A program made the translations under genes and the position numbers. Below the pieces are notes generated by a model. That model searched no databases, was not told where the DNA came from, and was given only the letters and a program-made list of their open reading frames with translations. Positions 13,328-43,657 of a DNA stretch of 64,000 bases are shown one piece after another. The DNA comes from Adineta ricciae. Lineage: Eukaryota > Rotifera > Eurotatoria > Adinetida > Adinetidae. The stretch lies in the NCBI GenBank assembly GCA_905250025.1, contig CAJNOJ010000027.1, forward strand, positions 310,001 through 374,000. The letters are read 5' to 3'. Each line of letters starts with the position of its first letter. The first letter of the stretch is position 1.

Positions 13328-13401
13328 TCCCATTCAATCAGTGGTTATCACAACCAATTTTCTCTTCACTTCTCCTAGCAAATATTTCCATTCAAAGCAA
13401 A

Positions 13402-13788
13402 ATGGCGAAATATAGCTCACTCTTCATTCTCGTATGCATGGCCTGTGTTGTTTATGGCCAACAAACCCTAGTCGATGTCTCAACTCAGGCTGTCTGTACT
13501 GAGTCTGGCATACAAAACCCCAGCTATGAAAACCGTTGGGCACAAGCTGGTCTTGATACCAATGTTGACATCGCTTTGAAATGTGGTGATATCGTTGCAT
13601 ATAAATTAGAATGGTTTCCAGTTGGTAGTGGAAAATGGTCCGATTGGTACGTTGTTGGTGTCAATGATATCGACTCAAAAACCGATGGATCGAAATTAAC
13701 ACTGAAACGCATGTGGAGTTACTTCGCCGATCATCGTCATATTTATATCACATGCAAGCAAAATAAATTCAAAGGATGTGCTTGTTAA
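13402..13788 (+). CDS. Small secreted protein, 128 aa, unknown family
   Basis: Single-exon gene. Signal peptide MAKYSSLFILVCMACVVYG is followed by Gln, a likely cleavage point. The mature part of about 109 residues has four or five Cys, two of them in the C-terminal KGCAC, and aromatic-rich segments such as KLEWFPVGSGKWSDWY. It suggests a compact disulfide-bonded extracellular domain, but I recognise no family. A strong TATA box lies about 80 bases upstream. The last 75 coding bases plus the 3' UTR are duplicated near 15.75 kb, so the locus has undergone local duplication. Confidence 0.75.
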   Translation: MAKYSSLFILVCMACVVYGQQTLVDVSTQAVCTESGIQNPSYENRWAQAGLDTNVDIALKCGDIVAYKLEWFPVGSGKWSDWYVVGVNDIDSKTDGSKLTLKRMWSYFADHRHIYITCKQNKFKGCAC

Positions 13789-20272: not shown

Positions 20273-20522
20273 AGCTGGAAAGGTCAGATTTGACGGTTTA
20301 TGAGTCGGTGAGGAATATATTAAATGTCTCTATTCTCCGTACTAAAAAATACAATAACTTTCGTCTGGTTTGCTATTGGTTAGACGGTGTTAAGCAATCA
20401 GAAGGAATGATTGATGATGCAGTGACAAAAAAAGTAACGTCCTAAGGAACGACAGAAGAGTAAAACTGCACTATTGATAACTAGCTGCGATTTGTCAGAA
20501 AACTTCATTACAATAAAACGTA

Positions 20523-24411: not shown

Positions 24412-24866
24412 ATGAGCAGTCAAGAATCTGTTATAAACATTCTAACCATTTACAGACGACAAAGACAAATAGTATGGTTAGTAGAAAAGGATAACCTTGT
24501 ATGTAACACTACACAAAATGACATCGAATATTTTCTTTCATTTAAGAAACAAACATATTGATTGAAATGATTAACATTCAATTCATTAGCATCAAACGCT
24601 TTCTTTGCCTGTCAAATCAAAGCGATCGCTTTCATTTTTGTTTATTACAAGATGCACTTAGATACTGTAGAATAAATTTCAAATTGTCGAAAAATCACTT
24701 AGGTGGGACATCGAATGTAACTATAGAGGATATTGATAGATGGTTAAATTATCATCGTGGATATCTGGCGGAAGTAGACAAGCATATTGCCGAGGGAAGA
24801 GAAAGAGAGAACACGAGAAAGAGAAAGAGAGAGAGAGAGATGGAGGAAACTCATGAAGAGAAGTAA
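24412..24866 (+). CDS. Possible small gene of unknown function
   Basis: A weak candidate. ATG at 24412 opens MSSQESVINILTIYRRQR. A second stretch from about 24653 reads ALRYCRINFKLSKNHLGG then IEDIDRWLNYHRGYLAEVDK. It ends in a run of Arg, Glu and Lys codons made by a GA-rich simple repeat. An intron from about 24502 to 24652 (donor GTAACA, acceptor TTACAAG) would join them in frame. The Trp/Tyr-containing middle part looks protein-like. No family recognised. It may equally be chance. Confidence 0.2.
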
Positions 24867-25807: not shown

Positions 25808-27566
25808 ATGAATAATATTATCTTGCGGAATCTATTTGTGCTAACCAGTGCTGCCATATTTCTTGGAACAATCATTCTTAATCTTCTAGCTATTGTTTAT
25901 ATTCGTTCAAGGCGAGACAAAACGTCAATTGCTATTCTTGTTGTTAATTTAGCGATTGCCGACATCATTCATGCCAGTATGTCTCGGATGAATTGAAGAT
26001 TTCGAAGTTTTTCTTTCGTTCTTGTTTCTTTCTAGTGGGAATTATCTTCTTTAGTACTAATTTGTTTACTCCAAGCTGGGTGTTTGGTGAATTTGGATGC
26101 AAATTTAGTTTATCCATCGACGTTCTTTGTACTGTGGTAAGATTAGATACGTTTCATTCTTTAATCGAATGAGAACCGGCTGATTTGCGACGTCCATTTC
26201 CTTGTTTAGTGACGAGGAATTGAATACACATAAAAAGCTGACTGAGTCTGCATTTGTTCCACTCCAAAGGAAATATGACATTTTAGTATGTTGGAAACAA
26301 GAGCAGCTTAAAAAAGGTTTTTGTTTGTGCGCAACTGCAAGTCGCGAAAAAGTTCAAACAAGTGTCTAGAGTATCCTTTGAGAGAAAAAGCCGCTAATGT
26401 CGGATCAAGAGACATAATTATATATAACTACGAAAGAAAAACAGAATAACATAATTGCCAAGTGTTTATTAATACTTGAAACTAACTTCATGTTTATAAA
26501 TACATACATAAAAACATGACAGCGAAAAACAACGAATCAAGGACAATGGTATTATTAATAAACACCATAACAATAATATCCAAATGAGTTGATAACTATC
26601 TCATTAGAGAGAAATCGATTAATGATAACAGAAGCTCTGATTTCATTAGAGAAAAACATTCATGCGAACAATCGCAAATGATTTTTGGAAAACACCTTCG
26701 AAATCATCTGAAATTTCTTCTAGGTCATTGTCTATACAGTCGCAGCATTGAGCGTTGAACGTTACATCGATGCTCGATCGAAACTGTCAGCCAGAGTTCG
26801 GTTCTTCATAACATTTGCATCGGTGATTGTCATCTGGACAGTTGGAATCTTGTTACCATATCCATTCATTTTCTACACATTTCTCTACGATCAAAATAAA
26901 AGTTCAACGAAAAATCTGACAACATCGATCTTAACATGTCGATCCGTTCTCTCCGAGCATGCTTTACTTATCTACGAAATCGTTCTTTATATCATGGCAT
27001 TTATCATACCGTATTCAATAATTGTCGTATTTTCATTAAAGCTGCTTCGATTTCTACGTCAATGGCTGAACCGAAAGCAGAAATTAACGCGATTAAATGT
27101 CGTGAAGAAGCGTACACGCGGAGTTAAGCTTGTCCTATGTATTGTCTTATCATTTCTCATATGTTATACACCGTTCTGGATCTTTAAATTTTACACAAGC
27201 TTCCTACTTGATGAAACGATACGTCGTCGACCATTACTTAGGCATTTTCTGACATATGCACATCAACTTGTTGTTCTACTTAGTCATATCGAAGGCATTT
27301 TAAATCCATTATTCTTCATTGTTTTAACGGATCATTTCTGTAAAACATTTTCGAAGCATCGACAGAAAACATGGAATTTCCTTGGAACAAAATCATCATT
27401 AATTTCACGAAATGGCGAAAGAAAATCGTCGATTGTTAACGGCAAAAATTCAACACGAAGAATAGTAACAACAGGTGGTAATACAGAAATAAACGGTCTT
27501 CTATCATCACATCCGACTCTTTGTGAAGAGAATGATAAAATTACCATAGCCGTTCTATCTCATTAA
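25808..27566 (+). CDS. Rhodopsin-family neuropeptide-type GPCR
   Basis: Seven-helix receptor, 370 residues in three exons (25808-25976, 26036-26136, 26724-27566). The second intron is 587 bases, long for this window. Helix 2 carries LAIADI, helix 3 ends in ERYIDA (the E/DRY box), helix 6 reads FLICYTPFW, and helix 7 has NPLFF in place of NPxxY. A Cys pair (GEFGCKF before helix 3 and LTCRSVL in loop 2) can bond. Loop 3 is short and basic (RKQKLTR, VKKRTRG). The tail is rich in Ser/Thr and basic residues. The layout resembles peptide receptors such as somatostatin/allatostatin-C or FMRFamide types, but I cannot name the ligand. An FLRFamide precursor lies 3 kb downstream, which is suggestive at most. 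AATAAA follows the stop. Confidence 0.87.
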
Positions 27567-28325
27567 CACTTGTATATTGTTTATAGTAGAATTGCGATTA
27601 ATAAACATATGTATAGAAACGAAGAAGAGTTCTATTTCATGATAACAGATGTTCCTTAGTCGCACAAAGCATCGATCAGATGTTTGTAAAGCTACAAACA
27701 CCGACTTGCAAAAGAACCTGGAATGATTTTATATAGACTCTCATGAGATTTGCTCTCAGAGCTCTTTTAGTATAAATATTCCCGACTTCGATTGATTTTT
27801 GCATAATATCAAGCGGAAATTAAGCCATATTTCTTGATTACATTATCGAAACGAAGAAATCTACTCGATGGCAAAAATTCATTGTTCAGACCTTTGCAAA
27901 ACTGGACTTTGGTGTTTTCTGCAGTCATATGCAATCTCAAGTTGATAGCTGCACCGTTGTGTAAAAGAGACAAAAGAATTCTTATACCGAGTCTTGAGAA
28001 TGTTATCATATATTTCGAGATAGAGCAGGATGGCGAGTAAAACTGATTTGTCCTATTTTATCAACAAATGACGAAATCATTGAAGCATGTCGAAACTAAT
28101 ACAAACATAACAAGGGCAATATTATTCATTACGTGTATGATTACGTGCTACGTCGGGAATATCTTTTTCTTTTTCTTTTTCGTTCTATTCCTAGCGCATC
28201 AAGAAGAACGTCATATCGAAACAGCAGTTCGATACGTTTTTTTCTTCGTTTTCGAATCTCAAAGTAAGTACGAAATGCAAATCGACATTCCTGAAATGAT
28301 GTTTTGTACATAGATTTCAATCGAA
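27567..28325. other. Spacer, no gene seen
   Basis: 3' UTR of the GPCR (AATAAAC near 27600) then unremarkable AT-rich DNA up to the next ATG. Confidence 0.4.
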
Positions 28326-30305
28326 ATGGGTAATCTGCATGGTAAAGATCGGTTGCCAAAACATCATCCCACTCTCGGTCCTTCGTCGAAGACGAGTCCT
28401 GTCGATGACCCAAGTGATCCTCCATTCGTTGTGGTCTGGTGTGATGCATCGATCGGTTCAGATACAAATGCTAGCGATGATGTGAATACCTTAATACAAT
28501 TGACACGTATTGTGAATAGAAAGCGGCAGTTGATCCATACTTTCAGTGAGTTGGATGCATGTCAAGATTTTATCTATCATGCGAGTAATGTTTGCTTGAT
28601 TGTGTCTGGTCAAATGGGTACTCAACTTGTTCCATTAGTTCATGGTCTTCATCAATTACATTCGGTTTATATATTCTGTTTTAATAAACCAAAATACGAT
28701 CAGTGGGCGAAACAATTCAATAAAATTCGTGGAGTTTATACTGAAATCGATGAAATATGTGACTATTTGCGAAAATACTTTGCTGCCCAATCAACAATAT
28801 CTGACGAAGAACAATTACAATTCGACATTTTCAGGAAAAATCCTGATTTAGCTTCGGGCGATCGACAAGACGTTCCGTTTCTTCATTCTATTCTCATCAA
28901 ATTGATTTTGTCGAACATGAATTTAATTAAAATTGAAGACATGATTAATTACTGCCGGATTGAATATTCGAGTCCTCATCAGCAGCATTTAATCAATGAT
29001 TTAGAAAAGGTCTACACGCAATATGATCCTGTTTGGTGGTATACACGGGACAGTTTTCTCCAAACTATTGTTAATCGTGCTCTACAAATCAATGATCTAT
29101 TTACTCTATGTACGATGAGTCCGTTCATACAACAACTTGTTAAGCAACTTGCAACTTCACATGAAGAACAGAACACTTCAATGTCAAAAGACTTAGTGTT
29201 GTATTCATATCAATTATTATCATTTGATGATTTTGAAAAAATCAGATTAAACCAAGGAGGACTAATGTGTATTAATCAATTTACTTCTGCTAACAGCGAA
29301 AAAGCGATACCTTTGACATTTCTGCAACATCAAGCAGCACCACCTGCCGCAACGCCAGCCACGACACCAGCAACATCATTAGCCACAACGCCAGTCACGA
29401 TACCAGGCGCAACACCAGCACCAGCAGCAACGCCTGCATCAACGTTTGCAACAACACCAACAACCGACACCGTTACCATCAATCCCATTCAGATCAATGC
29501 AATTCTCAACATCACAATTCCGCATGGCGCGACACCGAATGTTCCGTTTGCGAACATTGGTGCAGACAGTGACTTTGTTCACGAAAATGACTATCTCATA
29601 TCTATGACAAGTATCTATCGAATTGATAAGCTTGAGCAATTTCCGGAAGATCCTGCGTCTTGGCATATCTATCTGACGTTAATTGGTGAAAAAGATGAGC
29701 AATATACTGATATAGTGCATTACTTAACTTTAACTTATAAGCTTGAAGAGTCCACTCTACCTGAACTCGCATCATCCGTTACACACAAACTGTATCAATT
29801 CAAATCAACACGCAAACTATTTGAAAAAGCCTACTCTTCGAAAATTCGACAAATGCGTACGGGTCTGATGAATTATAATATGGGTGTGATTTACGATTGT
29901 ATGAGTGAATACGCAAAAGCTATTAGCGAATATAAATACGGTGTAGAGTTCGTTCGGCAAACCACACCGGACGGGTTTTCCGTCGATCATGCATGTCTCG
30001 CACCGGTATTTTCGAATGTGGGGATATCGTACGAACGATTACACGTCTTTTCCAATGCAGTGGATCATGGATTTCGTGCAGTGACTATTGTATCGGACAT
30101 GGATGAGAAAACCTGTCCATTTCGAAAAGAACTTTTGGCTTCCGCATACTTCAATCTTGGCTTAATTCATGAGTTGGATATGAAATTTCCTCAAGCGAAA
30201 ATGTTTTATGAACAAGCTTTGAAATATCGACGTCAAGTATTGTCTCCTGAACATCCCGATATGAAAAGTTTAAAACACACTTTGAGTTTATTAACATCTG
30301 AATAA
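28326..30305 (+). CDS. ART-TPR family protein with decayed catalytic core
   Basis: Single-exon, 659 residues. It starts MGNLHGKD, a possible myristoylation site. Residues about 35-155 form an alpha/beta domain (FVVVWCDASIG, VCLIVSGQMG, SVYIFCFNKP) found at the front of many bdelloid ART-TPR proteins. Residues about 290-450 align with an ART domain: LYSYQLLSFDDFEKIRLNQG, then INQFTSANSEKA, then VPFANIG and ENDYLISMTSIYRI. None of the R, STS and ExE positions keeps its catalytic residue, so this looks like a pseudoenzyme. A Thr/Ala/Pro repeat (about residues 338-385) is inserted in the core. The C-terminus has TPR units (LMNYNMGVIYDCMSEYAKAI, AYFNLGLIHELDMKFPQAK). The frame is intact over 2 kb, so the gene is probably expressed. 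Polyadenylation AATAAA overlaps the stop. Confidence 0.85.
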   Translation: MGNLHGKDRLPKHHPTLGPSSKTSPVDDPSDPPFVVVWCDASIGSDTNASDDVNTLIQLTRIVNRKRQLIHTFSELDACQDFIYHASNVCLIVSGQMGTQLVPLVHGLHQLHSVYIFCFNKPKYDQWAKQFNKIRGVYTEIDEICDYLRKYFAAQSTISDEEQLQFDIFRKNPDLASGDRQDVPFLHSILIKLILSNMNLIKIEDMINYCRIEYSSPHQQHLINDLEKVYTQYDPVWWYTRDSFLQTIVNRALQINDLFTLCTMSPFIQQLVKQLATSHEEQNTSMSKDLVLYSYQLLSFDDFEKIRLNQGGLMCINQFTSANSEKAIPLTFLQHQAAPPAATPATTPATSLATTPVTIPGATPAPAATPASTFATTPTTDTVTINPIQINAILNITIPHGATPNVPFANIGADSDFVHENDYLISMTSIYRIDKLEQFPEDPASWHIYLTLIGEKDEQYTDIVHYLTLTYKLEESTLPELASSVTHKLYQFKSTRKLFEKAYSSKIRQMRTGLMNYNMGVIYDCMSEYAKAISEYKYGVEFVRQTTPDGFSVDHACLAPVFSNVGISYERLHVFSNAVDHGFRAVTIVSDMDEKTCPFRKELLASAYFNLGLIHELDMKFPQAKMFYEQALKYRRQVLSPEHPDMKSLKHTLSLLTSE

Positions 30306-30587: not shown

Positions 30588-31147
30588 TTAACCAAATCGT
30601 AAGAATTCACCTTTACGACCGAATCGGAGGAAATTGCTTGATGCTGCTGGTTGAGCTTCGCGACCAAAACGAAGAAAATTGTTCGAAGCTGCTTGTTGAA
30701 ACTGTCGACCGAATCGAAGAAAGTTGCTCGAAGCGGAGCTTGGAGCTTGTCGGCCAAAGCGAAGAAAAGCAGCTCCATTGGGATCAGGACGACCGAATCG
30801 GAGAAAGGTAGGTTGGGAACGACCAAAACGAAGAAATGACGAATATGTCGATGGAAATTGACGACCAAATCTTAAAAATTCTGCAGCTCGCGGTACAACG
30901 AAGTAGTCCTCGTCATCCTCCTTATCATCATTGACTATATCTTCGTTATCAATTATTGTCGAAGGTTGAATCAAAGTATTTGGTTGCGAACTTCGGCTAG
31001 CATCATTTGAATCTTGAGTTATGAATTTGAAACAGAAATGAAACAGTAAGAAAGCAAAAAAGAAAAGCATGTTGAGTTCCTACCACTAGTAACAGTCGAG
31101 ATTAATTGAAGACAGATCAAGGAAGCTAGAATGGTGAAGAAATACAT
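30588..31147 (-). CDS. FLRFamide neuropeptide precursor
   Basis: Prepropeptide of 162 residues in two exons (31084-31147, 30588-31012; intron 71 bases). Signal peptide [19 protein letters not shown] is followed by an acidic spacer ([13 protein letters not shown]). Eight copies of FLRFG then follow. Seven are followed by a single Arg, and the last stands at the very C-terminus before the stop. The Gly would be converted to the C-terminal amide. Predicted peptides include [12 protein letters not shown]-amide, SQPTFLRF-amide, [11 protein letters not shown]-amide and [13 protein letters not shown]-amide. Cleavage at single Arg rather than dibasic sites is notable. A TATAAATAG box lies at 31222-31230. 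FMRFamide-related peptides act through GPCRs or peptide-gated channels in invertebrate nerve and muscle. Confidence 0.96.
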
Positions 31148-32083: not shown

Positions 32084-32722
32084 CTATTTGCAAGCAATTG
32101 TACCTTTTGCGATTGTAATTTGACCATTACCACATTGAACGGCTACGAAAGAGAAAGTACATTTACGTACTCAAAGGATGACGGAAACCCTTGTTTTTGG
32201 TACTTACAATCGACTTCTTCACCATCTACAGAAACACTTGCTTCGACATCTGAACCACCGGCAACAGCGGAAGCAGCAACGTCGTCCGATACGGATGAAG
32301 CTAAAACAAAGAAAACACAAATTAATCACTTAATTAATTCTCTCTACTACACCACTACTGTGCCAGATTTCTCTATTACCTAGCACCCTCGTCCATCACG
32401 CATACACAGACTATCATGTCTTTCATGCACTTATTCTCAGTACAAGCCTTTCAAACAGAACAAAATCACTTACCGGCAGCAGCGCTTCTGGCTTTGTGGA
32501 TAAGTACTTCACGTAAAGTCAAAACCTTTTCGGGTGTACCTAGAATGAAAAAAAATTCTTCCTATCGTTGAATCTAATCCGGTAATTCAGCTTACGTTCA
32601 GATGTGATTTCGGATGGGAAAGTAGCTTCAAATTTGTCGCCAGTTTCCATTGCATTGATTTGATGTGCAGCAAAGATGATCATGCTGCATAATAATAAAC
32701 AGTACACACTGAATGATTGCAT
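32084..32722 (-). CDS. Array secreted peptide A1
   Basis: First of eight related prepropeptide genes. 114 residues in four exons (32596-32722, 32474-32539, 32208-32300, 32084-32142), all introns phase 1. Signal peptide MQSFSVYCLLLCSMIIFAAH, likely cut after INA. The middle is low in structure, with a basic site (LIHKARS) and an Ala/Ser/Val/acidic stretch. The last exon encodes the family core VQCGNGQITIAKGTIACK and the stop. The mature region has two Cys, so one disulfide is expected, closing a short beta-hairpin. Function unknown. The first exon and about 600 bases upstream are nearly identical to gene A2, inverted. Confidence 0.82.
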
Positions 32723-33325
32723 GGTAGCAGATTCACAAATTGTATTTCACAGTAAATGACGAATGAATGATGAAATCTCTCGCACAAACACACTTCTATT
32801 TATACCACCACACGACCAATCGTTGACCACTTCTATCTCTCTCGTCCACACATCGAACAATGACAAGCACAGAAACAAGCCTCGATAGCGATCCATTACA
32901 AAGCAACTATTTCGATATCTTCCCTGGATAGCATCTCCGAGAAGAATACTTTGTGTGACACACATTGTGACGACTTCTTAGTACACTCGGATAGTTATCG
33001 GACGATATACTGACTTGCCTATGATAATTCGAAGCAGTCAACACGTATCAAAGAGAAGAAGAAGAAGAAGACGAAGAAAAGAGGAAAGTGACGTCATTCG
33101 ATATGAACAGTTTTGTGAGAATATTCCTGAAATGGAATATCTTCTGTCAATAGAAATGCTGTATCTCTGAACAACGGCAGATGAACGTAGTCGAGATGAT
33201 TCGTCTTGCAATGAGGTCTATATTGATGAACGATGCACGAGATAGTTCAAGAAGTACATGGTTCGTGACGGATCTGATGAATTCGGCATGAAGAATATAA
33301 TTCGTTCGTCATGATGGCATGTTAG
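32637..33325 (-). repeat. Left arm of an inverted duplication
   Basis: Matches 35793-36470 in reverse complement at roughly 95 percent or better. It covers the signal-peptide exon of A1 and its promoter, including the TATA box, the CRE-like site and an ORF-like stretch that is only promoter DNA. The arms enclose genes B1 and C1, about 2.5 kb. Confidence 0.85.
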
Positions 33326-33492
33326 ATAGAAAGAACGAAAAAAGCATTGTCTGTATATTCGTTTCTTATGCATGTCGAAAAGAAAAAACGGTAATGAATG
33401 TCCGTTTCGGTGATATATATATATATGTGCATGCACGCAAATGTTGGCTGAATATATTTGATTATTTGCTATACTATTGTACATCTGCTAAC
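32723..33492. promoter_or_regulatory. Divergent promoter region A1/B1
   Basis: 770 bases between two start codons facing away from each other. A1 side: TATAAATAG (minus strand) at 32796-32804. B1 side: an alternating TATATATATATA run near 33412-33426. A palindromic CRE-like TGACGTCA lies at 33089-33096 and is followed by TTCGATAT. A block with CGGACGATATA and GCCTATGAT near 33000-33025 is shared with the D/B2, C1/A2 and C2/A3 regions. A GAAGAAGAAG tract sits near 33055. Confidence 0.65.
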
Positions 33493-34349
33493 ATGTATTC
33501 GTTTAATGTTTCGTGTTTAATTTTCTGCATTGTCATGGCCTGTGTTTTGTACGGAACACATGGTAATCCAGTGGAAAACACATCAAGCGCACCTGCTACC
33601 AGCACACCAGAGGAAATGTTGAAATCAGCATCACTTGATCAACCGATAGTCCAAATTCCAGGACTGGATATTCAAAAAATGTTGGAGGGGTTGAAAATGT
33701 CAGCAAATGGTAAAGTGTCCAAAATATTTGATCGTTCCTTGATTAGAAAGCATTTGTCAGGAGAGATCTCTAGTGAAATAATCTCTGCAGCGCGTGAACT
33801 TTTACTGCACTCTGTAGTAGACTACCTACATTTTCAACTGATTTCATTACCTGCCATAACACTCTTCACTCATTCTACAAATCCTATGAAAATTTTGCTT
33901 TCATTTCAGGACAAAGTGGTAATTCTCCAGGTTGTTCATCGAAAGGTATGTGAAAATTTAGTTTTTAGAACATGGCCAATAATGGCCGCTTTACGCTCGC
34001 ATAAACTCAGGAGTAAGGTCTACTTCTGCTGGTAGTAGCATAATATAAGTATGACTTTTTTGCTTTTCTGAAGATATCGGAAGTGCGAAAAATCTATGGC
34101 CACTTGTTTTTTATCTCTTTCCTTATAAGAGAGAGTGTTTAAGTATGGATGATTTGCAGTACAGTTAGCAGTTGAGTCATATTTATAAACTTTCAAGTCG
34201 CAATGTTTTCCCTACGTTTTTCTCATCATTCCTCGTGATTCAAACCGTCACTTTTATGATTCAAGAAGATCAATCTTTTTCTATTCATAGGCTCCAATAT
34301 TGGTAACGGTGTTGTCAGTCTATCTGGTCAAAGTATCTCCTGCAAATAA
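33493..34349 (+). CDS. Array secreted peptide B1
   Basis: 103 residues in three exons (33493-33709, 33910-33945, 34291-34349), both introns phase 1. Signal peptide MYSFNVSCLIFCIVMACVLY, cut about GTHG. A propeptide rich in Pro, Ser and Thr contains the amphipathic stretch IQKMLEGLKM. The 12-codon second exon gives QSGNSPGCSSK. The last exon gives GSNIGNGVVSLSGQSISCK. Two Cys in the mature end. The last exon and the 3' flank are close to those of B2, but the first exon is unrelated to that of B2, so the 3' end has been joined to different signal exons. AATAAA lies about 130 bases after the stop. Confidence 0.78.
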
Positions 34350-34990
34350 TCAAACAAAACCCAACGATCGTAGCGGAAAACAAGACTGACAATATCACCA
34401 ATCATTAGTTGTTCAAATTTATCAATAGTTCTTTTTCTCTTTTCTCTTTCCTCTTGTTGTCTAATGAATTATGTAATCAAATAAAATCTGCTCCAAACAC
34501 TAATCAAAATCATTCTTCTTTTCAAACTCGGTTTTATCCAACATACGGACCGGTATCAGCAATTTCGTTTACAGTTGTAAATGTCAGTGTTGATGAGACT
34601 TTTCTTTCGTTTTCATACTTTCACTGATGAATACATTTCCCATCGATATATGAAGAACAAATGATAATTGCTAGATTAGATGTGCATTGAATTATTTTCT
34701 TTATTAAATATTCAAAGTGAACAACACTACATGAAGCGATTGGAATAGATACGAGGAGAAATGATGAAACACTATGGTGAGAAATGGCATATAGGTCAAT
34801 GAGATGTTCATTCAATGATTGTTCACACCGATTTAACAACCATTTATAAGACCATTGATGATACCAAAGTTTCCTACGTCGACTGCGACGAAAAGAAAGA
34901 AAATGAATTGGGATATGAAATGTGAAACAGCATGAATACTCACCCTTGACGTCTCCAGTGGCAAAATCACTGCCATCAACTACAATGAAA
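34301..34990. repeat. Direct duplication, copy 1 (B1-C1 junction)
   Basis: About 690 bases from the last exon of B1 through the convergent spacer to exon 3 of C1. It matches 41220-41905 in the same orientation at about 95 percent. The two genes converge here, 484 bases stop to stop in both copies. Confidence 0.88.
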
Positions 34991-35621
34991 AGTAAAGATT
35001 CACGATGATGTATGGAGAAACTGGTACAATAAACGAAAATGTTCTTGTCTAAGTAAGAAACGCGTATCAGTCGTGTGATGCATCGATAGGTATATGTCTC
35101 ATCAGATGTTTATGATCGATGAAATCTTTAGCGAAGAGTGTTTAAATGGTTGAACTGCTCTGCTTGTTAGCTATCATAAGGATCATTTATTTGGTTCGTG
35201 CATCTATCGACTGAAACAAGTGTTTAGTCAGCACTTAAGGATTTGAGGACACTGATTATGACGAACTGCAGTTTGAATTTTGTCTTATGACAAGAGAACT
35301 TATAATCATTGCAATTTACTTACAGTTGATCCGACCGCATGGTTGCTTCTTCGCGGGCCTTCTAACGTTCGCCCTTGTTTGTCCCTTTCGACGCACATTT
35401 CCGACTGGCACTTCCACGCGTGATTCATCTTGTCCTTCATCATCTAATTAGTAAAGGGATAATTCAACAAGAAGACTTGCCTTTGTATTTTGCTTACCGT
35501 CTGGCCTCCTAAAAGAATTGGGATCGCTCATTGCCTTCTGAGTGCCAAATCTTGCAGCTGTTTGATGAACAATCAAAGTCATCAGGATACATAATAATAA
35601 ACAAAGAGTTAATGTTTTCAT
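34833..35621 (-). CDS. Array secreted peptide C1
   Basis: 109 residues in four exons (35498-35621, 35324-35443, 34944-34979, 34833-34882), all introns phase 1. Signal peptide MKTLTLCLLLCILMTLIVHQ, cut about TAA. The propeptide is highly basic (VRRKGQTR, VRRPAKK) and gives a furin-type site directly before the mature part QPCGRINFDGSDFATGDVK, then VDVGNFGIINGLINGC at the C-terminus. Two Cys in the mature region, the second being the last residue. It is the C-type variant of the array core: Gly-Asn-x-Gly-Ile-Ile then Gly-x-Ile then Cys. Function unknown. Confidence 0.8.
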
Positions 35622-36385
35622 GATACAACAAGATCAATAAATGTTGACGCAAACAGAATTGGGATATCGCGTGAATGACTAAACCTATTCAGTCAACATC
35701 TATACATGTTTCTTTTTCGATATTTAGTCAGGCAGTAATAATCGTTTTTCGTTTCTGTCGAAACAGTCGTAACAACTATATTCTCTTTCTAACATGCCAT
35801 CATGACGAACGAATTATATTCTTCATGCCGAATTCATCAGATCCGTCACGAACCATGTACTTCTTCAACTATCTCGTGTATCGTTCACCAATATAGACCT
35901 CATTGCAACACGAGTCATCTCCACTACGTTCATCTGCCGTTGTTCAGAGATACAGCATTTCTATTGGCATAAGATATTCCATTTCAGGAATGTCCTCACA
36001 AAACTGTTCATATCGAATGACGTCACTTTCCTCTTTTCTTGTTCTTCTTCTTCTCTTTGATACGTGTTGACTGCTTCGAATTATCATAGGCAAGTCAGTA
36101 TATCGTCCGATGACTATCTGAGTGTACTAAGAAGTCGTCACAATGTGTGTCACACAAAGTATTCTTCTCGAAGATGCTATCCAGGGAAGATATCGAAATA
36201 GTTGCTTTGTAATGGATCGCTATCGAGGCTTGTTTCTGTGCTTGTCATTGTTCGATGTGTGGACGAGAGAGATAGAAGTGGTCAACGATTGGTCGTGTGG
36301 TGGTATAAATAGAAGTGTGTTTGTGCGAGAGATTTCATTATTCATTCGTCATTTACTGTGAAATACAATTTGTGAATCTGCTACC
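35622..36385. promoter_or_regulatory. Divergent promoter region C1/A2
   Basis: 764 bases between the C1 and A2 starts. The A2 side carries TATAAATAG at 36304-36312, the C1 side a TATA-like element near 35698-35704 (minus). TGACGTCA at 36018-36025 is the mirror of the A1 site. From 35793 rightward it is the inverted copy of the A1 promoter. The 72-codon open frame at 36143-36361 lies entirely in promoter DNA. Confidence 0.65.
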
Positions 36386-36470
36386 ATGCAATCATTCAGT
36401 GTATACTGTTTATTATTATGCAGCATGATCATCTTTGCTGCACATCAAATCAATGCAATGGAAACTGACG
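35793..36470 (+). repeat. Right arm of the inverted duplication
   Basis: Reverse complement of 32637-33325. Identity is highest in the promoter and signal exon and drops sharply after the codons for METD, where A1 and A2 mature parts diverge. Confidence 0.85.
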
Positions 36471-37014
36471 ACAAGTGGGTCACAGAAGTTCCATCAGAAT
36501 TGAACTTTGAACGTAGGAAGAGTTGCATTTTTAAATAACAATACTGAATTTTTTATTGTATTTGTAGATACTACCGTAAAAACATGGCCACTACCCGAAA
36601 AAGTTCATGAAAAACGCGCATCTATTGCTGCCGGTAGGTCATTTACGCCAGATGGCGATCGACAAGGAATCTAAGTATATATCGAGAAAGGAGGGTGAGG
36701 GTGTGTAAATAGTTGTGCAACGAAAGGAAAGCATAATGATAAAGAAGCTCACTAAATGCAGAGGAAAGACAGGAAAATATTGTTGCAATTGATCAAATAG
36801 GTGAACTAATTATTTGTTGTTTTTTAGCCGCCGTTTCAGGTTCAGGCTCACGTAGACCTGCTAGAGTTCGAACCAGCGGACCATCAAGTAAGTGTCAATC
36901 AAAGTGGTTTCAATTACCTTTGGAATGCGTAACTTTATTGTTTCTTTTACAGACATTCAATGCGGTAATGGTGTTGTTACTATTACTGATGGTCAAATCT
37001 CATGTGGCAAATAA
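36386..37014 (+). CDS. Array secreted peptide A2
   Basis: 104 residues in four exons (36386-36512, 36568-36633, 36828-36887, 36953-37014), all introns phase 1. The signal peptide MQSFSVYCLLLCSMIIFAAH is identical to A1. The segment after it (DDKWVTEVPSELNFE) has diverged strongly from A1. A basic site (VHEKRAS) and a further Arg-rich stretch (GSRRPARVRTSG) precede the core NIQCGNGVVTITDGQISCGK. Two Cys in the mature region. AATAAAATA lies about 95 bases after the stop. Function unknown. Confidence 0.82.
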
Positions 37015-37689
37015 TTGTATCGGCGAATGATATGGATAATTTGATCAAATTCAATATTTTTTCGTACACATTTTCTTTCTTTCGCTGTTGTTAACATGTA
37101 TTAATCATCAATAAAATATCACTTATCAAATAATAAAACCATTTTGGAATGTGACTGAATAAAATGAAAACAAAAAGTACTCATTCATCTTCAAAGTGTC
37201 AAATGTATGCGTTGTTGCAGCTTTGAGAGCCATGTATTGTAAGCAATTGCGAGAGAAGTTTGCTATCCCTCTCTCTTCTTTTGACGCTGTTTTACGACTA
37301 CACGTATTCTGTCGCGGGCGTCAGATTATCTGGCAAATTGTCTTGTCACCGTGAAAGCTATTAAATATGACAGTGAATGATCGCTGTTCTGTAGGGATTA
37401 TATTCATAGTTCTATTAGTGAATAAATAATTTGAAAGATTTAGATATATACGTATATCCAATTATTTCCTTATTCATTATTCAAGACAGAAATAAGGACA
37501 ACAGGTAGTACAGTTAAAGATTATCATGAAAAATGGAATATTTGCAGGTTAAATGTTGTTCTATTGCTTGCCCCTATCAGTTTAACAAAATATCTACCAC
37601 CATAGTCATGTACCCTCGCCGTAAAAAAACGCAACGAAACTAGTTCACAAACAGTATAACACTGTTGAAGGACTAAGAGTGTCCGTCAC
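37015..37689. other. Spacer after A2
   Basis: 3' UTR of A2, then AT-rich DNA with no gene recognised, leading to the C-type relic. Confidence 0.4.
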
Positions 37690-37980
37690 TCCATGGATAT
37701 CTCTGATGGGTAATTCTGCTGCAGCTGACTGATATGCAGTCCAAACGACCGAGAGACACAATAATAATCAGCAAGTATTTAGCGACTTCATAAAAAAGAT
37801 TCACAATAATTGAAATGGTCAGAGCTGGAATATAGGCAAAATTATGAAGTCTATAGTCAGCTAGCAGTTTATATAAACACGGACGGAAGGACCTTCTCGA
37901 TATTTGTTGAAGCAAATAGACAGTCAATAACTTTTCGTTTCTGTCGAAATAGCTTTTGTTTTCTTTCTAACACGTTAACT
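37690..37980 (-). pseudogene. C3, relic of a C-type array gene
   Basis: Minus-strand sequence aligns with the signal exon of C2 (ATGAAGTC start, TTATTATTGTGTCTC, GCTGCAGCAG end) and with the upstream flank of C1 and C2 (GATTCACAATA, CGTTTCTGTCGAAA, TTCTTTCTAACA). The signal region is broken and no matching last exon with the core was found, so this is an inactive remnant. It shows that the array once held at least nine members. Confidence 0.65.
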
Positions 37981-38305
37981 TGACGTGGCGAACAAAACAT
38001 CGTTCGTACATGTTCCATCAATTCATGCCAAAGGTCATCGAGGTCGTCTACTGAGCACTTTTTAGCGTATCTCTTATTGATCACAGACAGTTGCGCCATG
38101 TGTTCAATCCTCAATATGATATCATGCAATGAAATAGGGAAAGATGTTTCTAAACAGACAATGTTGAAATGACGTTCTTGTGAATACACATGAGTTTTGG
38201 AAAGTTTTCAAGAGTGAAATATAGTCAGGACATTCATCTCTTCGAGTTAACATTATTGGATAACATTGAATATAGAAAAATGTGCTTTTCAAACTTTCTC
38301 AGTAT

Positions 38306-38409
38306 TGTATGGTTCTTGTACAATGATCGAAAGATTTTGAATGAATGCGGTCGGTCACGATAACACTGTATAGAATAGTATATGTTTGAACTAATTCCTT
38401 GATGAACAT
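38306..38409 (-). pseudogene. Relic of the ephrin first exon
   Basis: Minus-strand DNA aligns at about 70 percent with the signal-peptide exon of the ephrin gene (46331-46443). Shared landmarks are ATGTTCATCAA at the start and TCGATCATTGTA near the end, followed by AACCATAC. The reading frame is not maintained along the exon. The frame at 37869-38189 just downstream might be a decayed continuation, but I could not align it convincingly. Confidence 0.5.
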
Positions 38410-38637
38410 CGATTTCTGCTCGGCTCTCGGCTGATTAGATCCAGTCTTACTGTACTCAAGCGTTGATCATTTTCTGAACACCCGATATGCCAAGGAAAAC
38501 TAGCAAACAAGTGATTCGAGAATTTTAGACAGTGTGTATACAATTATTTTCTTTATTGATGAGATTCAGAACTGGTACAAGAAATTGATGAGAAGAAAAT
38601 TGAAATAGAGAAGTGTATGGTTGCCATCTTCTTGGAA

Positions 38638-39351
38638 CTATTGTAGTTCACAGACAATTCTGCCATTCTTCATTGTAATCACTCCATTACCACAGACTGA
38701 AGCTAAACGAAATAAGAAGCGAATACGATCAAACATGATTCTTCGAAATGACTATTGAAATACTCACTTTGAACTATTCCAACACGGCGTTGTCGTTGTA
38801 AAGCTAAAACAAAAGCAAGCCATGAATTAAAGGATATCAGAAACCAATAAACATCGAAGGCTAGTTTTGAATGGCAAGGACCAACAGTCAGTAACATCTT
38901 AGATTCATGCAAAATCTTTCTTGTATTCAGTGATGGAGCTTCGTATGAGAAACTGACTGTCCTCTTCAAATTTCTCGCGTAGTTCTCCGACTCGTTGTCA
39001 GAAGATCTAGAGGTGAATTTGTCTGCTTATCGATTTCATAACTACGCCAACTATTCGCATGTTTAACAATCGAACTACTTTCGTATCCAGGAATATCATT
39101 CACTTACGAATATTAGAAACATCACGCTTTTTCTTAGATGACAAATGCACATTTATGCCCGTATTCGCCATTTGTGGTCCTCCTAAAACGAGACGAATGT
39201 TTTAACAGTATCCGACAGCAGCACAGTTACCTGTGTTAACATGGATCGATGAAAGCCCTGGCCCTCCGATATGCACATCTGCATTGGCTTGGTATGCAGC
39301 GAAAATAATCAAGACACAAAAGGCTAAGCAGTACGTAATGGATGATTGCAT
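38638..39351 (-). CDS. Array secreted peptide D
   Basis: 98 residues in four exons (39231-39351, 39108-39182, 38768-38803, 38638-38702), all introns phase 1. The signal peptide MQSSITYCLAFCVLIIFAAY resembles the A type, cut about QANA. Exons 1 and 2 carry two similar Gly/His segments (DVHIGGPGLSSIHVN, then TGGPQMANTGINVHLS), perhaps an internal exon duplication. Basic sites SSKKKRD and LQRQRRV precede the core SVCGNGVITMKNGRIVCELQ. Two Cys in the mature region. TATATA lies near 39431-39438 on the minus strand. Function unknown. Confidence 0.8.
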
Positions 39352-40121
39352 GGTAACAGGTACGTAAGACGAAATTAATAAAGAAATTCGATGGAGGACG
39401 AATGATGAAATTTATTCAAGGGACATAAACATATATACAATCAGAAGACCAATCGTCTCTTATTTCTTTCTTCGGGCGAATGAGAGGAAAAGAAAGTAAA
39501 ATCATGTCCTGGACGAATAGTCCCTGTATAATAGGTCGTTTTTGCTCTTTCTTTAATCGAAAGTTCGAGAACGATGCTTTGATAGTAAATATGATTGTTT
39601 TTAGTTAATGCACGTTCCAGTCGGACGATATAATTCTTCGCCTATGATGTTCTACTATAATGGACTTGTGTACGAGAAGGACATGACGTCATTCGACATA
39701 AATAACTTTGTTTAGAGGTTCACCAGAAACATACAATTGCTCAACCGAAATTATCTCACAAAAGTCTTGTTTATCAAGAAAAATAGAGACAAATGTTAAT
39801 TAGTTAATTTGAGGTACAGCGAATTGCCTTGTTCATATATGTGAAGTCGTATGGATGGGTAGATGACTCCTATCGGTGAAATGAGTCATGTGGGGAAAAT
39901 TATCTATTTGTTGATTCGTCATGTTGGTATGTTAGAAAGAGAAGAATTGCCGACGTTGGCTCGGCTGAAGTGAAAAGATATAATTTATGTTCGTATGAAT
40001 ATTGGAGAGGAAAAGAGAAACGTTTGACTTCAATTTATAAGTAAGTGACTGAACGTTAGTAGTATCCGTATCATCATTACTTGATAGGACGATTCGTTTA
40101 GCTATTGATATTTATCAATCT
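39352..40121. promoter_or_regulatory. Divergent promoter region D/B2
   Basis: 770 bases, exactly the length of the A1/B1 spacer. TGACGTCATTCGA at 39684-39696 and the block CGGACGATATA with GCCTATGAT near 39616-39643 match the A1 promoter in order and orientation although the rest has diverged. TATA elements lie about 80 bases before each ATG (TTTATAA at 40034-40040 for B2). Confidence 0.6.
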
Positions 40122-41268
40122 ATGAACATGAGTTCATTGGCACTGTATTTCACTACGATCTGCACAGTTCTCGTGTCTCTGACGTATCGATCGGAGAGTG
40201 CTTTTTTACGATTTGGACCAGATGGTTTACAATTAGGCGGGGGTGCTGATGGTAGTGTAGGTTTTATGAATATTCCATTTTCAACCGGTGGTGTCAAGAT
40301 ACAATCGGCCGTAGACGGAGGATTTGCTAATTCGTTCATAAACATACCAATGGTGCAACGATTTGGATCACGATTCAATCAGTATAGGTATTCAACAGCC
40401 ACCAGTAGACCATTAGGGCGAACGAATTTCGATTGGTATTCTCGTTGGGGCCTTCCTTTTTCAAATCTATTCAATGGTCAAACATATCAACAAAGATTTC
40501 GATCATCTGGTGCTCAGTGGCAAAGCCAAACAGGCTCACAAACCGCTTCTTCAGTAAATTCTCAAAGTATTCGTCCTTGGTTTTCTAACGTCAATCGAAT
40601 GGTTAATGCTCAAGTAACTCCAGCGAATATTCCCATCACCGGTATGTAATCTGTCAAAGTAGTTTAACTATGTGATTTCAATCAGCAGATCGTGAATCTC
40701 TAATGGCACATAAGTCATCCAGTTGTACTCATCATGAAGCAATGAGAAATGGTGGAGAAGCACCTGTCGAATATACGATTTCTTTTAACTTTTCTTTCGC
40801 ATCGACCATATCTTCTACAATTTTTTCGTATCTTGCATTGATCTGAATCTTTGTTTATGTTTTAGGCTTCGCTAGTTCTGGAACCGGATGTTCAAGAGGA
40901 GGTACGTGATAATTGTTCAAATTAAAATTTCCTTCAATAAGCATGTGTACAGAATGATCGATGTCCGATTCACTTCTATCTTGCTCTTTCTCTTTCTTCG
41001 GCACATCTATACATGAATTACCTTTGATTAAAACTTCAATTAATGAGCTACAAAACATTGCCTCCGACGATGATTCCATTTCAAATAAAAACTAAATGTT
41101 TCTCGTTTGTTTTGTTTTAGTTGATGCAAATGGTCAACAATGTAACTATCTGAACAACTGTTTTCGATCTATAGACTTATGTGCACTAAATTTTTCTTTC
41201 TACTTATAGATATCAGTGCGGCTAATGGTGTTGTCAATCTGTCCGGCCAAAGTATCTCCTGTAAATAG
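40122..41268 (+). CDS. Array secreted protein B2 (long form)
   Basis: 211 residues in four exons (40122-40641, 40866-40901, 41121-41141, 41210-41268), all introns phase 1. A start at 40128 is also possible. The signal peptide ends about SESA. The long first exon is Gly-rich (PDGLQLGGGADGSVGFMN) and then Gln/Ser/Asn-rich, unlike any other member. The short exons give TGFASSGTGCSRG and VDANGQQ. The last exon gives YISAANGVVNLSGQSISCK. Two Cys near the C-terminus, as in the rest. The sequence AFLRFGPDG right after the signal peptide is probably not a neuropeptide, because no basic residue follows the Gly. Function unknown. Confidence 0.75.
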
Positions 41269-41905
41269 TCAACTCAATTGCAATGATCATAGTGCAAAGC
41301 CAGAGTGACAATGCCACCAATCATTAGTTGTTCAAATTTATCAATAGTTCTTTTTCTCTTTTCTCTTTCCTCTTGTTGTCTAATGAATTATGTAATCAAA
41401 TAAAATCTGCTTCAAACACTAATCAAAATCATTCTTCTTTTCAAACTCGGTTTTATCCAACATACGGATAGGCATCAGCAATTTCGTTTACAGTTGTAAA
41501 TGTCAGTGTTGATGAGACTTTTCTTTCGTTTTCATACTTTCACTGAAGAATACATTTCCAACCGATATATGAAGAACAAATGATAATTGCTAGATTAGAT
41601 GTGCATTGGATTATTTTCTTTATTAAATATTCAAAGTGAACAACACTACATGAAGCGATTGGAACAGATACGAGGAGAAATGATGAAACACTATGGTGAG
41701 AAATGGCATATAGGTCAATGAGATGTTCATTCAATGATTGTTCACACCGATTTAACAACCATTTATACGGCCATTGATGATACCAAAGTTTCCTACGTCG
41801 ACTGCGACGAAAAGAAAGAAAATGAATTGAGATATGAAATGTGAAACAGCATGAATACTCACCTTTAACGTCTCCAGAGCTAAAGTCACCATTAACTAGA
41901 ATGAA
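41220..41905. repeat. Direct duplication, copy 2 (B2-C2 junction)
   Basis: Second copy of the block at 34301-34990. It includes the last exon of B2, the convergent spacer and the last two exons of C2. Differences are mostly single substitutions, denser right after the B stop. Confidence 0.88.
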
Positions 41906-42337
41906 AAGTAAGTATTCACGATGATATATGCATAGATTAACGAAATATAAGGAAATGTGTGAGAACCGAGACTAATTCGGATTTGATAGGAAATTCGTAT
42001 CATTCTCGTGGCTTATTTGCTGATAAAGCTACAGTCTGAATCTTGTGTCATAACGAGAGAACTTCAATGGGTATACTAAACTTACGGTTGACTCTTCCGC
42101 AACGACGTTTCACTTTTATTTCACTCAGTTGTTCATGTGCTCCGTCTTGTAGCTTGTCATCTAATGTACAAACAATTTAAAAACGAAAATTGAATTCATG
42201 CTGCGCCTACCAACTGACACTATTAAAGGTGCAAAATTTGTCGTCATCTCGAGAACCACAGGCGCTGCAGCTGTTTGATGCACATTCAAAATGACCAGGA
42301 AACACAATAATAAGCAACAAACATTTGATGACTTCAT
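41752..42337 (-). CDS. Array secreted peptide C2
   Basis: 94 residues in four exons (42211-42337, 42086-42160, 41863-41895, 41752-41801), all introns phase 1. Signal peptide MKSSNVCCLLLCFLVILNVH, cut about QTAA. After a short propeptide the site EIKVKRR stands directly before the mature start CGRVNLNGDFSSGDVK. The C-terminus VDVGNFGIINGRINGC matches C1 except one residue. Two Cys in the mature region. The propeptide exons have diverged far more than the last two exons and spacer, which belong to the direct duplication. Function unknown. Confidence 0.8.
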
Positions 42338-43140
42338 GGTAAAAGATTCACAATAGTTTAACTGACCAGAATTTGAACACAGAATAACTAATCAACTCTA
42401 TTCAGCTAACGTATTTATGTATATATCGGCCAAATGACTACGCATCATCATTTACCGATTGGATGTTCATCCAATCTAATACAAAAACAATGTCTTTGTA
42501 TTTCAGTCAAAATAACTGCAGTAACTATTCTCTTTCTAACATACCAATAGGACGAACAAATTATCCTTCGCAAATGAATCATCAGCGATATATCAAGGCA
42601 CGTACTTATTCACTTCGAACTATTTCACATATGATTTTACTCGCGTGATCCAAAATGGCTGCATCGGCGAATACTTTTGCTAATTTATTCCGAATGAATA
42701 ATTTCATCTGTTTTCTTTTAACAAAAGGATCCAGAAGACTTTGCGTTGTTTAATGGCATCGCTTTCTCGGCGATTGAAATGGTTTAGATTTTCTGTTTTT
42801 TTCCTCTCTCTAACACACACGCCGACCGCTTCGAATTATCATAGGCAAGTCAGTATATCGTCCGATAACTATCCGAGTGTACTAAGAAGTCGTCACAATG
42901 TGTGTCACACAAAGTATTCTTCTCGAAGATGCTATCCAGGGAAGATATCGAAATAGTTGCTTTGTAATGGATCGCTATCGAGGCTTGTTTCTGTGCTTGT
43001 CATTATTCGATGTGTGGACGAGAGAGATAGAAGTGGTCAACGATTGGTCATGTTGTTGTATAAATAGAAGTGTGTTTGCGCGAGAGATTTCATCATTCAT
43101 TCGTCATTTACTGTGAAATACAATTTGTGAATCTGCTATC
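42338..43140. promoter_or_regulatory. Divergent promoter region C2/A3
   Basis: 803 bases. From about 42826 on it is nearly identical to the A1 and A2 promoters, including CGATAACTATCCGAGTG-type sequence and TATAAATAG at 43059-43067. The TGACGTCA site of the other three regions is absent from the part that has diverged. The open frame at 42898-43116 is promoter DNA. Confidence 0.6.
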
Positions 43141-43657
43141 ATGCAATCATCAACCATCTATTGCTTCTTATTATGCAGCATGATCATCTTTGCTGCACAC
43201 CAAACAAATGCGATGGCAATTGGAGACAAATTAGTCTCGGAACCTGTCGTCGAAGTCACCTTCGAACGTATGTGGAGTTGCATGTTTATATTCGATGATA
43301 CAATTTTTTTTCGTCTCATTTTTAGACTCTACCGTAGAACCAAAACCATTACTTGAAAATCACCATCAAAAACGTCAAAGTAATGAATTTCATTTTCTTT
43401 CGGCCGAGAGAGCGAAGATAGTGTGAGAGATAGATGAACATGTAGTATTGAAATTTTCCTCGTGGCTGGTTACTGCTTATCGTCTCCTTAAAGTCAGCTG
43501 TAGATCTCGAGACAAGATTTCGCGCGTTAGATAGTAAATGTCAATCGAAGTGATTTCTTTTACCTGTCAGATATGTAAATACGTCTTTTGTCTTCTAGAC
43601 ATACAATGTGGTAATGGTGTTGTTACAATTTCACAAGGTGAAATCATGTGTGGATGA
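43141..43657 (+). CDS. Array secreted peptide A3 (short form)
   Basis: 79 residues in three exons (43141-43267, 43326-43379, 43599-43657), both introns phase 1. The signal peptide MQSSTIYCFLLCSMIIFAAH is of A type, cut about QTNA. The third exon present in A1 and A2 is missing, and its absence keeps the frame because neighbouring introns share a phase. The basic site HHQKR lies directly before the mature peptide QNIQCGNGVVTISQGEIMCG, 20 residues with two Cys and an N-terminal Gln that could cyclise to pyroglutamate. It is the simplest statement of the family core. AATAAA lies about 75 bases downstream. Confidence 0.8.

What the first reader, a model, noticed from the sequence alone, without database searches (positions are those of the whole stretch)
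32084..43657. Array of eight secreted peptide genes with a shared C-terminal core, apparently an undescribed family
Seen directly: eight prepropeptide genes (A1-, B1+, C1-, A2+, D-, B2+, C2-, A3+) can be spliced in frame. Each has a signal peptide and a last exon coding a core close to x-C-G-N-G-V-V-T-I-x-x-G-x-I-x-C (A, D), G-N-G-V-V-S-L-S-G-Q-S-I-S-C (B1, with A-N-G-V-V-N-L in B2) or G-N-F-G-I-I-N-G-x-I-N-G-C (C). I recognise no known domain. Inference: one-disulfide hairpin peptides, perhaps defence, signalling or mating factors.
Basis: partly seen in the sequence, partly recalled or inferred. Interest (0 to 1): 0.92.

Follow-up and report, generated by a model that had tools for sequence, protein, structure and literature searches.

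The report
Rotifer array of processed hairpin peptides
A bdelloid rotifer carries a cluster of eight genes for small secreted peptides with a shared tail closed by two cysteines, from a gene family that matched nothing described; it looks like a home-grown set of secreted effectors or signals whose job is untested.

Summary
The window is from the bdelloid Adineta ricciae. Between 32084 and 43657 lie eight spliceable prepropeptide genes in strict -,+ alternation, i.e. four head-to-head pairs. Public gene models equal my models for A2, D and C2 and agree in part for B1 and A3. The core pattern occurs 8 times in the window, all in the array, and never in 60 shuffles. The genome also holds a homologous array, a third divergent array and two dispersed members. 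All 15 distinct precursors modelled have exactly two cysteines beyond the signal peptide, the second 0-3 residues from the end. Pfam, NCBIfam, PDB and three searches of 5.8 billion proteins gave no relative outside A. ricciae except two unnamed fragments. New here: TGACGTCA in three of the four shared promoters and upstream of other members; partners differ between haplotypes; no array in the ohnologous loci. Best reading: secreted one-disulfide hairpin peptides, many cut at basic sites, acting as lineage-specific effectors (0.4) or signals (0.35). Expression and function are untested.

The parts
32084..32722 (-). A1 prepropeptide, 114 aa; exons 32722-32596, 32539-32474, 32300-32208, 32142-32084; core VQCGNGQITIAKGTIACK
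   Evidence: allele P0003
33493..34349 (+). B1 prepropeptide, 103 aa; exons 33493-33709, 33910-33945, 34291-34349; C-terminus GCSSKGSNIGNGVVSLSGQSISCK
   Evidence: P0018 covers residues 15-103, allele P0017 full length
34833..35621 (-). C1 prepropeptide, 109 aa; exons 35621-35498, 35443-35324, 34979-34944, 34882-34833; C-terminus KK|QPCGRINFDGSDFATGDVKVDVGNFGIINGLINGC
   Evidence: mini-exon chosen by analogy with C2, a longer model scored equally
36386..37014 (+). A2 prepropeptide, 104 aa; exons 36386-36512, 36568-36633, 36828-36887, 36953-37014; C-terminus NIQCGNGVVTITDGQISCGK
   Evidence: identical to P0001
38638..39351 (-). D prepropeptide, 98 aa; exons 39351-39231, 39182-39108, 38803-38768, 38702-38638; RQRR|VGIVQTSVCGNGVITMKNGRIVCELQ
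   Evidence: identical to P0008
40128..41268 (+). B2 prepropeptide, 209 aa; exons 40128-40641, 40866-40901, 41121-41141, 41210-41268; C-terminus GCSRGVDANGQQYISAANGVVNLSGQSISCK
   Evidence: the mini-exon has a counterpart in the B-like gene at C1:336184; no public model seen
41752..42337 (-). C2 prepropeptide, 94 aa; exons 42337-42211, 42160-42086, 41895-41863, 41801-41752; KVKRR|CGRVNLNGDFSSGDVKVDVGNFGIINGRINGC
   Evidence: identical to P0015
43141..43657 (+). A3 prepropeptide, 79 aa; exons 43141-43267, 43326-43379, 43599-43657; HQKR|QNIQCGNGVVTISQGEIMCG
   Evidence: splice as in P0006 and in the allele P0004
33089..33096 (.). TGACGTCA between A1 and B1, 367 and 396 bp from the two ATGs
36018..36025 (.). 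TGACGTCA between C1 and A2, 397 and 360 bp from the two ATGs
39684..39691 (.). TGACGTCA between D and B2, 333 and 436 bp from the two ATGs
32634..33330 (.). A1 upstream region and first-exon part, inverted repeat of 35784-36474 (A2) at 96.7%
34304..35014 (.). B1-C1 convergent 3' block, direct repeat of 41223-41930 (B2-C2) at 93.2%

Best explanation
The array is a local expansion of one family of secreted peptide precursors. Each precursor has a signal-peptide-like start (sequence only). In 9 of 15 members a basic pair (KR, RR, KRR or KK) lies before the C-terminal segment, where a furin or prohormone convertase would release it; the two cysteines would close a ring around a beta-hairpin or short beta-meander; where the tail is G, GK or X-G(K) (A2, A3, E1, E2) the C-terminus could be amidated, and an N-terminal Q after the cut (A3, E1, C1) could become pyroglutamate (all inferred). 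Divergent neighbours share upstream DNA with a TGACGTCA site, so they may be switched on together by a bZIP factor of the CREB/ATF type (inferred). The peptides then act outside the cell. My committed guess at the role is a lineage-specific set of released effectors against microbes, parasites or competitors, because signal peptide and upstream DNA are better kept than pro-part and core while copy number grows; a released signal is almost as likely.
For: Public models equal or agree with my models for five of eight genes; the 2018 and 2021 A. ricciae annotations used RNA-seq hints (passages of PMC5916493, and PMC7943196). Two and only two cysteines beyond residue 31 in 15 of 15 distinct precursors, the second 0-3 residues from the end; a basic pair before the C-terminal segment in 9 of 15 (A2, A3, D, C1, C2, E1, E2, P5a, H; my reading of the table), RX[KR]R in 5 (D, E1, E2, P5a, H). 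Allelic pairs, pooled over the five genes compared: pN/pS 0.022/0.151 in residues 1-24, 0.086/0.160 in the pro-part, 0.053/0.146 in the last 18 residues; 21 of 21 paralogous core comparisons have pN (0.06-0.47) below pS (0.26-0.80). D and the dispersed gene H keep 15 of 23 mature residues, against 10 of 24 in the signal peptide and 7 of 25 aligned in the pro-part. TGACGTCA: 3 in 11.7 kb of array against 2 in the other 52.3 kb (Poisson 0.011 at background rate, 0.0003 at composition rate), 4 in the third array, 1 at H 210 bp upstream; 18 of 27 family genes have one within 600 bp (counted). All named hits of the three protein searches are A. ricciae: 7 of 7, 14 of 14 and 11 of 13, the other two unnamed. 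No family gene in the 17 kb read at each ohnologous locus.
Against: No expression, peptide or activity data. Six of 15 precursors (A1, B1, B2, Bb, F, G) have no basic pair before the core (F's only pair is its C-terminal KK), so B-type products may stay large. Predicted net charges run from -6 to +3 (8 of 11 between -2 and +1), unlike classical membrane-active defence peptides. The D/H pair behaves like a signalling peptide (mature part kept, rest lost), not like a toxin family. AlphaFold confidence is low. Constraint is not uniform: between alleles pN exceeds pS in the B1 core (0.121/0.078), in the A3 and D pro-parts, and in the D signal peptide (one change). Nine of 27 genes have no TGACGTCA within 600 bp: C2, A3 and their alleles, Bb (676 bp), E3-E5 and G. 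Allowing one mismatch, the window has 34 sites, 9 in the array (18% of the length, about 6 expected), so only the exact site is enriched. The A1/B1 and C1/A2 upstream regions are copies of one another and E1/E2 have the same flanks, so those sites are not independent. No TATA box was found within 400 bp of C1, C2, B2, Bb, Bb2, E4, E5 and G. Head-to-head partners differ between haplotypes, so the pairing itself is not conserved.
Confidence: 0.4

Rival explanations
1. Neuropeptides, hormones or water-borne peptide signals: processed cyclic peptides acting on receptors of the same animal or of kin.
For: Convertase-type sites; G or GK amidation tails in A2, A3, E1, E2; N-terminal Q after the cut in A3, E1 and C1. 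D and H keep the mature part while the pro-part is lost. TGACGTCA is the site of cAMP-responsive factors (established knowledge). An FMRFamide-like precursor sits next door.
Against: No named relative outside A. ricciae, whereas neuropeptides are usually kept between genera (established knowledge); tandem expansion; the signal peptide is better kept than the core between alleles.
Confidence: 0.35
2. Structural or adhesive secreted proteins (cuticle, egg shell, foot-gland glue) with a beta-rich, cysteine-closed tail.
For: B2-type products have long Gly/Ser/Asn-rich stretches without basic pairs; glycine-rich C-terminal segment of the C type with a predicted strand pair.
Against: Short A, D and C products with basic cuts and, in some, amidation tails; two cysteines per chain placed to close a ring give little cross-linking (inference).
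Confidence: 0.15
3. Decaying or spurious ORFs: duplicated DNA with chance splice sites.
For: Much of the array is repeat; no transcript was seen here; E5 in the third array has no start codon in the sequence held; pN exceeds pS in the B1 core.
Against: Open frames kept in two haplotypes; pooled pN below pS in core and signal peptide, and in 21 of 21 paralogous cores; public models agree; the core is also kept at an unlinked locus.
Confidence: 0.04

Closest known systems
Neuropeptide and peptide-hormone precursors with one C-terminal disulfide ring (for example allatostatin C or CCAP types; recalled, not tested by call)
   Same: Signal peptide, basic cut sites, one disulfide, in some members amidation tail and N-terminal Q
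   Different: Ring of 15 residues counting both cysteines (A, D, E, F, G, H), 22-29 (B) or 32-33 (C); no sequence match; tandem array; no orthologue found
Disulfide beta-hairpin antimicrobial peptides (arenicin, tachyplesin; recalled, not tested by call)
   Same: Small secreted precursor, predicted strand pair near two cysteines
   Different: Those are strongly cationic; 8 of 11 predicted peptides here lie between -2 and +1
Tandem secreted-effector families with conserved signal peptide and changing mature part (frog skin peptides, cone-snail peptides; recalled, not tested by call)
   Same: Signal peptide and upstream DNA better kept than the rest; multiple copies; fixed cysteine frame
   Different: Only two cysteines; core still recognisably shared; D/H pair shows the opposite pattern; source tissue unknown

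Membership tests
Neuropeptide precursor | Signal peptide and basic cleavage sites before the mature part | tested here: inconclusive
   Hydrophobic signal-like N-terminus in the 15 models by eye (no predictor was available); basic pair before the C-terminal segment in 9 of 15 (my reading of its table)
Neuropeptide precursor | Amidation signal G(K/R) at the C-terminus | tested here: inconclusive
   A2, A3, E1, E2, i.e. 4 of 15 precursors
Neuropeptide precursor | Match to a described neuropeptide family | tested here: not met
   No Pfam match above cut-off for 8 proteins; a calcitonin-family row for P0005 (E 0.19, 12.6 bits against 22.3) lies in a signal peptide; nothing known
Neuropeptide precursor | Receptor and neuronal expression | not testable with these tools
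   no expression data held
Cationic beta-hairpin antimicrobial peptide | Strong positive net charge | tested here: not met
   Net charge -6 to +3 over 11 predicted peptides, 2 of 11 positive (D +1, H +3)
Cationic beta-hairpin antimicrobial peptide | Hairpin closed by disulfide | tested here: inconclusive
   C-terminal strand pairs predicted for P0004 and P0015 at low confidence; two cysteines in 15 of 15; the bond itself is inferred
Tandem secreted-effector family | Signal peptide conserved, mature part diversifying | tested here: inconclusive
   Allelic pN 0.022 in residues 1-24, 0.053 in the last 18; the D/H pair shows the reverse
Any described protein domain family | Score above curated cut-off in Pfam or NCBIfam | tested here: not met
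   0 of 8 proteins in Pfam (4 weak rows), 0 of 5 in NCBIfam (1 weak row)

The most novel reading that the evidence does not exclude
A peptide system that arose within the Adineta ricciae lineage: an ancestral single gene of the H/D type spread into arrays of head-to-head genes that share TGACGTCA promoters, and inversions through the repeated promoters reshuffle which two cyclic hairpin peptides are released together, haplotype by haplotype.
Probability: 0.1. Interest if true: 0.8.

Novelty: new variant of a known kind. Interest (0 to 1): 0.55.

Why it matters
Ribosomal peptide effectors and signals of rotifers are little explored: a 2021 neuropeptide paper says Gnathifera lack deep sampling and that one study of three Rotaria species found very few precursors (PMC8557429, passage), though single rotifer neuropeptide papers exist (PMC10730642, listing and start of abstract). 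Work on bdelloid defence has stressed horizontally acquired synthetases (PMC11258130, abstract and passages). A home-grown, expanding peptide family would be a testable second arm, and a case of gene-family birth and rearranging shared promoters in an asexual tetraploid.

Tried and rejected
Other bdelloids: three protein searches (the cap) returned no protein named as A. vaga, A. steineri or Rotaria; I could not verify by call that their proteomes are in the database. PMC7943196 (passages) says the assemblies and gene predictions of that study, A. ricciae, A. steineri and Rotaria among them, were deposited under one study id. Absence is provisional: the searches need shared 5-residue words, and short multi-exon genes are often missed.

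Origin before the tetraploidy: not supported at this locus. The ohnologous loci C33:509-526k and C50:313-330k keep flanking genes but no core pattern or family-like signal exon. tblastx did list scattered short pieces (10-58 residues) between array coordinates and these loci; they do not line up with family exons and I took them as chance.

C130 weak hit (E 0.85): region read, no family core or signal exon, dropped. Its neighbour in that list, C104 (E 0.30), proved to be member H.

FLRFG at the N-terminus of mature B2 beside the FMRFamide-like gene: taken as coincidence; the B-like gene at C1:331214 has IMIG there. B2 was sent to Pfam without its mini-exon; the 209-residue form was used.

No fold search was run: both models are too uncertain.

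Papers, listings seen: bdelloid + neuropeptide (14 papers), Adineta ricciae + transcriptom (48, 15 listed), bdelloid pathogen terms (31, 10 listed), rotifer + antimicrobial peptide + Adineta (8), rotifer + neuropeptide precursor (18, 12 listed), bdelloid + secreted peptide (0), rotifer + disulfide + hairpin + antimicrobial peptide (1, a helical three-disulfide family by the start of its abstract), bdelloid transposon terms (2). Passages were opened in five papers (PMC11258130, PMC8557429, PMC5818035, PMC5916493, PMC7943196). In what I saw nothing described this family. Only open-licence PMC papers are held, and supplements could not be read, so whether these genes respond to the fungus in PMC11258130 is unknown to me.
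Full report
WHAT IS THERE. The window is C27:310001-374000 of a 130 Mb genome. The A2 precursor, spliced from the window, is identical over 104 residues to an unnamed protein of Adineta ricciae, a bdelloid rotifer. Scripts that chained GT-AG introns gave complete precursors for all eight genes. Order and strand are A1-, B1+, C1-, A2+, D-, B2+, C2-, A3+: perfect alternation, hence four head-to-head pairs and three tail-to-tail junctions. Public models equal mine for A2, D and C2, and agree where they overlap for B1 (89 residues) and A3 (66 residues); A1 is backed through its allele; C1 and B2 by homology only. Six of the eight alleles on C1 (A1, A2, A3, B1, C2, D) also equal public models (P0003, P0002, P0004, P0017, P0016, P0009). 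My splicer alone would have missed the public splice for A3 and for the A1 and B1 alleles. For A. ricciae the annotators used RNA-seq hints (PMC5916493, passages; PMC7943196, passages), but I saw no read. The core is far beyond chance: 8 matches, all inside the array, none in 60 shuffles with the strict pattern, mean 0.15 and maximum 1 with the loose one (patterns written post hoc).

THE FAMILY IN THE GENOME. A homologous array lies at C1:1662-1687 kb, 84-96% identical piece by piece along the collinear path. Pooled allelic pS of 0.15-0.16 fits the mean KS of 0.14 that PMC5916493 gives for A. ricciae homologues (passage). Read left to right that array is A3-, C2+, B1-, A2+, D-, B2+, C1-, A1+: still head-to-head pairs, but A1 faces C1 and A2 faces B1 there, against A1/B1 and C1/A2 in the window; D/B2 and C2/A3 are kept. 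Two inversions, one through the A1/A2 upstream repeats and one through the B1/B2 3' repeats (both repeats), would explain it (my reading); a mis-assembly across those repeats is not excluded. A third, divergent array lies at C1:328-354 kb: E1, E2, E3, E4, an E5 without a start codon in the sequence held, F, two B-like genes and P5a. Single members lie at C196:146936 (G; public model P0012) and C104:294878 (H). H carries VHKRQRR|WGKVKTTVCGNGVITLANGKIICA; D carries RQRR|VGIVQTSVCGNGVITMKNGRIVCELQ: 15 of 23 residues the same in the mature part, 10 of 24 in the signal peptide, 7 of 25 aligned in the pro-part. P5a's last exon and H were spliced by eye and are tentative. For counting I modelled 15 distinct precursors (A1-A3, B1, B2, C1, C2, D, E1, E2, F, P5a, Bb, G, H); left out are the alleles, E3 and E4 (E3 the same predicted protein as E1, E4 with one extra lysine), E5, and the second B-like gene, whose model was not finished. 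Genome searches list best candidates only, so more members may exist.

COMMON ANATOMY. 15 of 15 have exactly two cysteines beyond residue 31, the second 0-3 residues from the C-terminus. Ring size, both cysteines counted, is 15 residues in A, D, E, F, G and H; 22 in B1; 29 in B2 and Bb; 33 in C1, 32 in C2; 13 in P5a (computed). B2, Bb and C keep a mini-exon between first cysteine and core (for example VDANGQQ, LNGDFSSGDVK), which A and D lack. Basic pairs precede the C-terminal segment in 9 of 15; RX[KR]R in 5. Tails allow amidation in 4 of 15 (A2, A3, E1, E2). AlphaFold of P0004 (14-sequence alignment) and P0015 (9 sequences) gave a C-terminal strand pair (69-72/75-78 and 75-81/85-91), mean pLDDT only 58 and 55. 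Five of the eight allelic pairs were compared (A1, A2, A3, D, B1): pooled pN is below pS in signal peptide, pro-part and last 18 residues, but pN exceeds pS in the B1 core, in the A3 and D pro-parts, and by one change in the D signal peptide; in 21 of 21 paralogous core comparisons pN is below pS.

PROMOTERS. TGACGTCA lies between A1/B1, C1/A2 and D/B2, 333-436 bp from both start codons; on C1 between B1/A2, D/B2 and C1/A1 (342-437 bp); the third array has four sites and H one, 210 bp upstream. 18 of 27 family genes have a site within 600 bp; without one are C2, A3 and their alleles, Bb (676 bp), E3, E4, E5 and G (counted); upstream of E3 there is a one-mismatch form. Background in the window is two sites in 52.3 kb, one of them (24323) beside a stretch conserved in both ohnologous loci. 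With one mismatch allowed the array holds 9 of 34 sites, hardly more than its 18% share. Flanks differ between the D/B2, E, P5a, F and H sites; A1/B1 and C1/A2 are copies, as are E1 and E2. The TATA-region 20-mer of the A genes occurs at up to one mismatch only before A1-A3 in both haplotypes (6 places); at two mismatches there are 9 more places, and the reversed control gave 8 matches in all. That a CREB/ATF-type factor binds TGACGTCA is established knowledge of the motif, not a result here.

ORIGIN. The ohnologous loci (GPCR 60-61% identical; gene at 44466 about 40% over part of its length) keep the flanks in rearranged order; no peptide gene was found in the 17 kb read at each. So the array was gained here, or lost there. 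Protein searches: 7 of 7 hits A. ricciae with A2 (10 candidates), 14 of 14 with the A/D profile (4586 candidates), 11 of 13 with the mixed profile (628 candidates); the other two are unnamed ENA fragments of exon 1 (P0019 like B1, P0020 like G). Pfam and NCBIfam gave nothing above cut-off; PDB one row at E 0.99 and none.

FUNCTION. Shown: spliceable, on the whole constrained, secreted-type precursors with a fixed cysteine frame and recurring upstream elements. Inferred: cleavage, ring, amidation, pyroglutamate, co-expression. Guess: released effectors (0.4) or signals (0.35), with a structural role less likely (0.15). Charge near zero argues against classical cationic antimicrobials; lineage restriction and tandem growth argue against a conserved hormone; the D/H pair argues that at least one type has a kept target.

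Noticed in passing
30588-31079 (-): FMRFamide-like precursor with repeated FLRFGR units (Pfam FARP, E 2e-13), directly beside the array.
   Followed up: partly
26724-27566 (+): Rhodopsin-type GPCR exon (Pfam 7tm_1), 99% identical in the homologous locus and 60-61% in two ohnologous ones.
   Followed up: partly
24323-24517: TGACGTCA followed by a stretch conserved with both ohnologous loci (C33:518067, C50:322008).
   Followed up: no
C1:1662-1687 kb (L029-L031) against window 32084-43657: Head-to-head partners are exchanged between the two haplotypes (A1 faces C1 instead of B1, A2 faces B1 instead of C1): inversions through repeats, or mis-assembly.
   Followed up: partly
C1:353421-353448 (L034): E4 and E5 almost touch head to head, with an undetermined base and no start codon for E5: a palindromic junction or assembly fault.
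   Followed up: no
C1:1680.8-1681.1 kb (L030): Run of N and low-complexity DNA inside a long intron of the A1 allele.
   Followed up: no
13327-13788 (+): Short secreted-looking ORF of 153 aa without a Pfam match at E 0.01.
   Followed up: no
28314-30305 (+) and 19067-20329 (-): Two long ORFs with TPR-like parts just below the Pfam cut-offs; the first has counterparts in both ohnologous loci.
   Followed up: no
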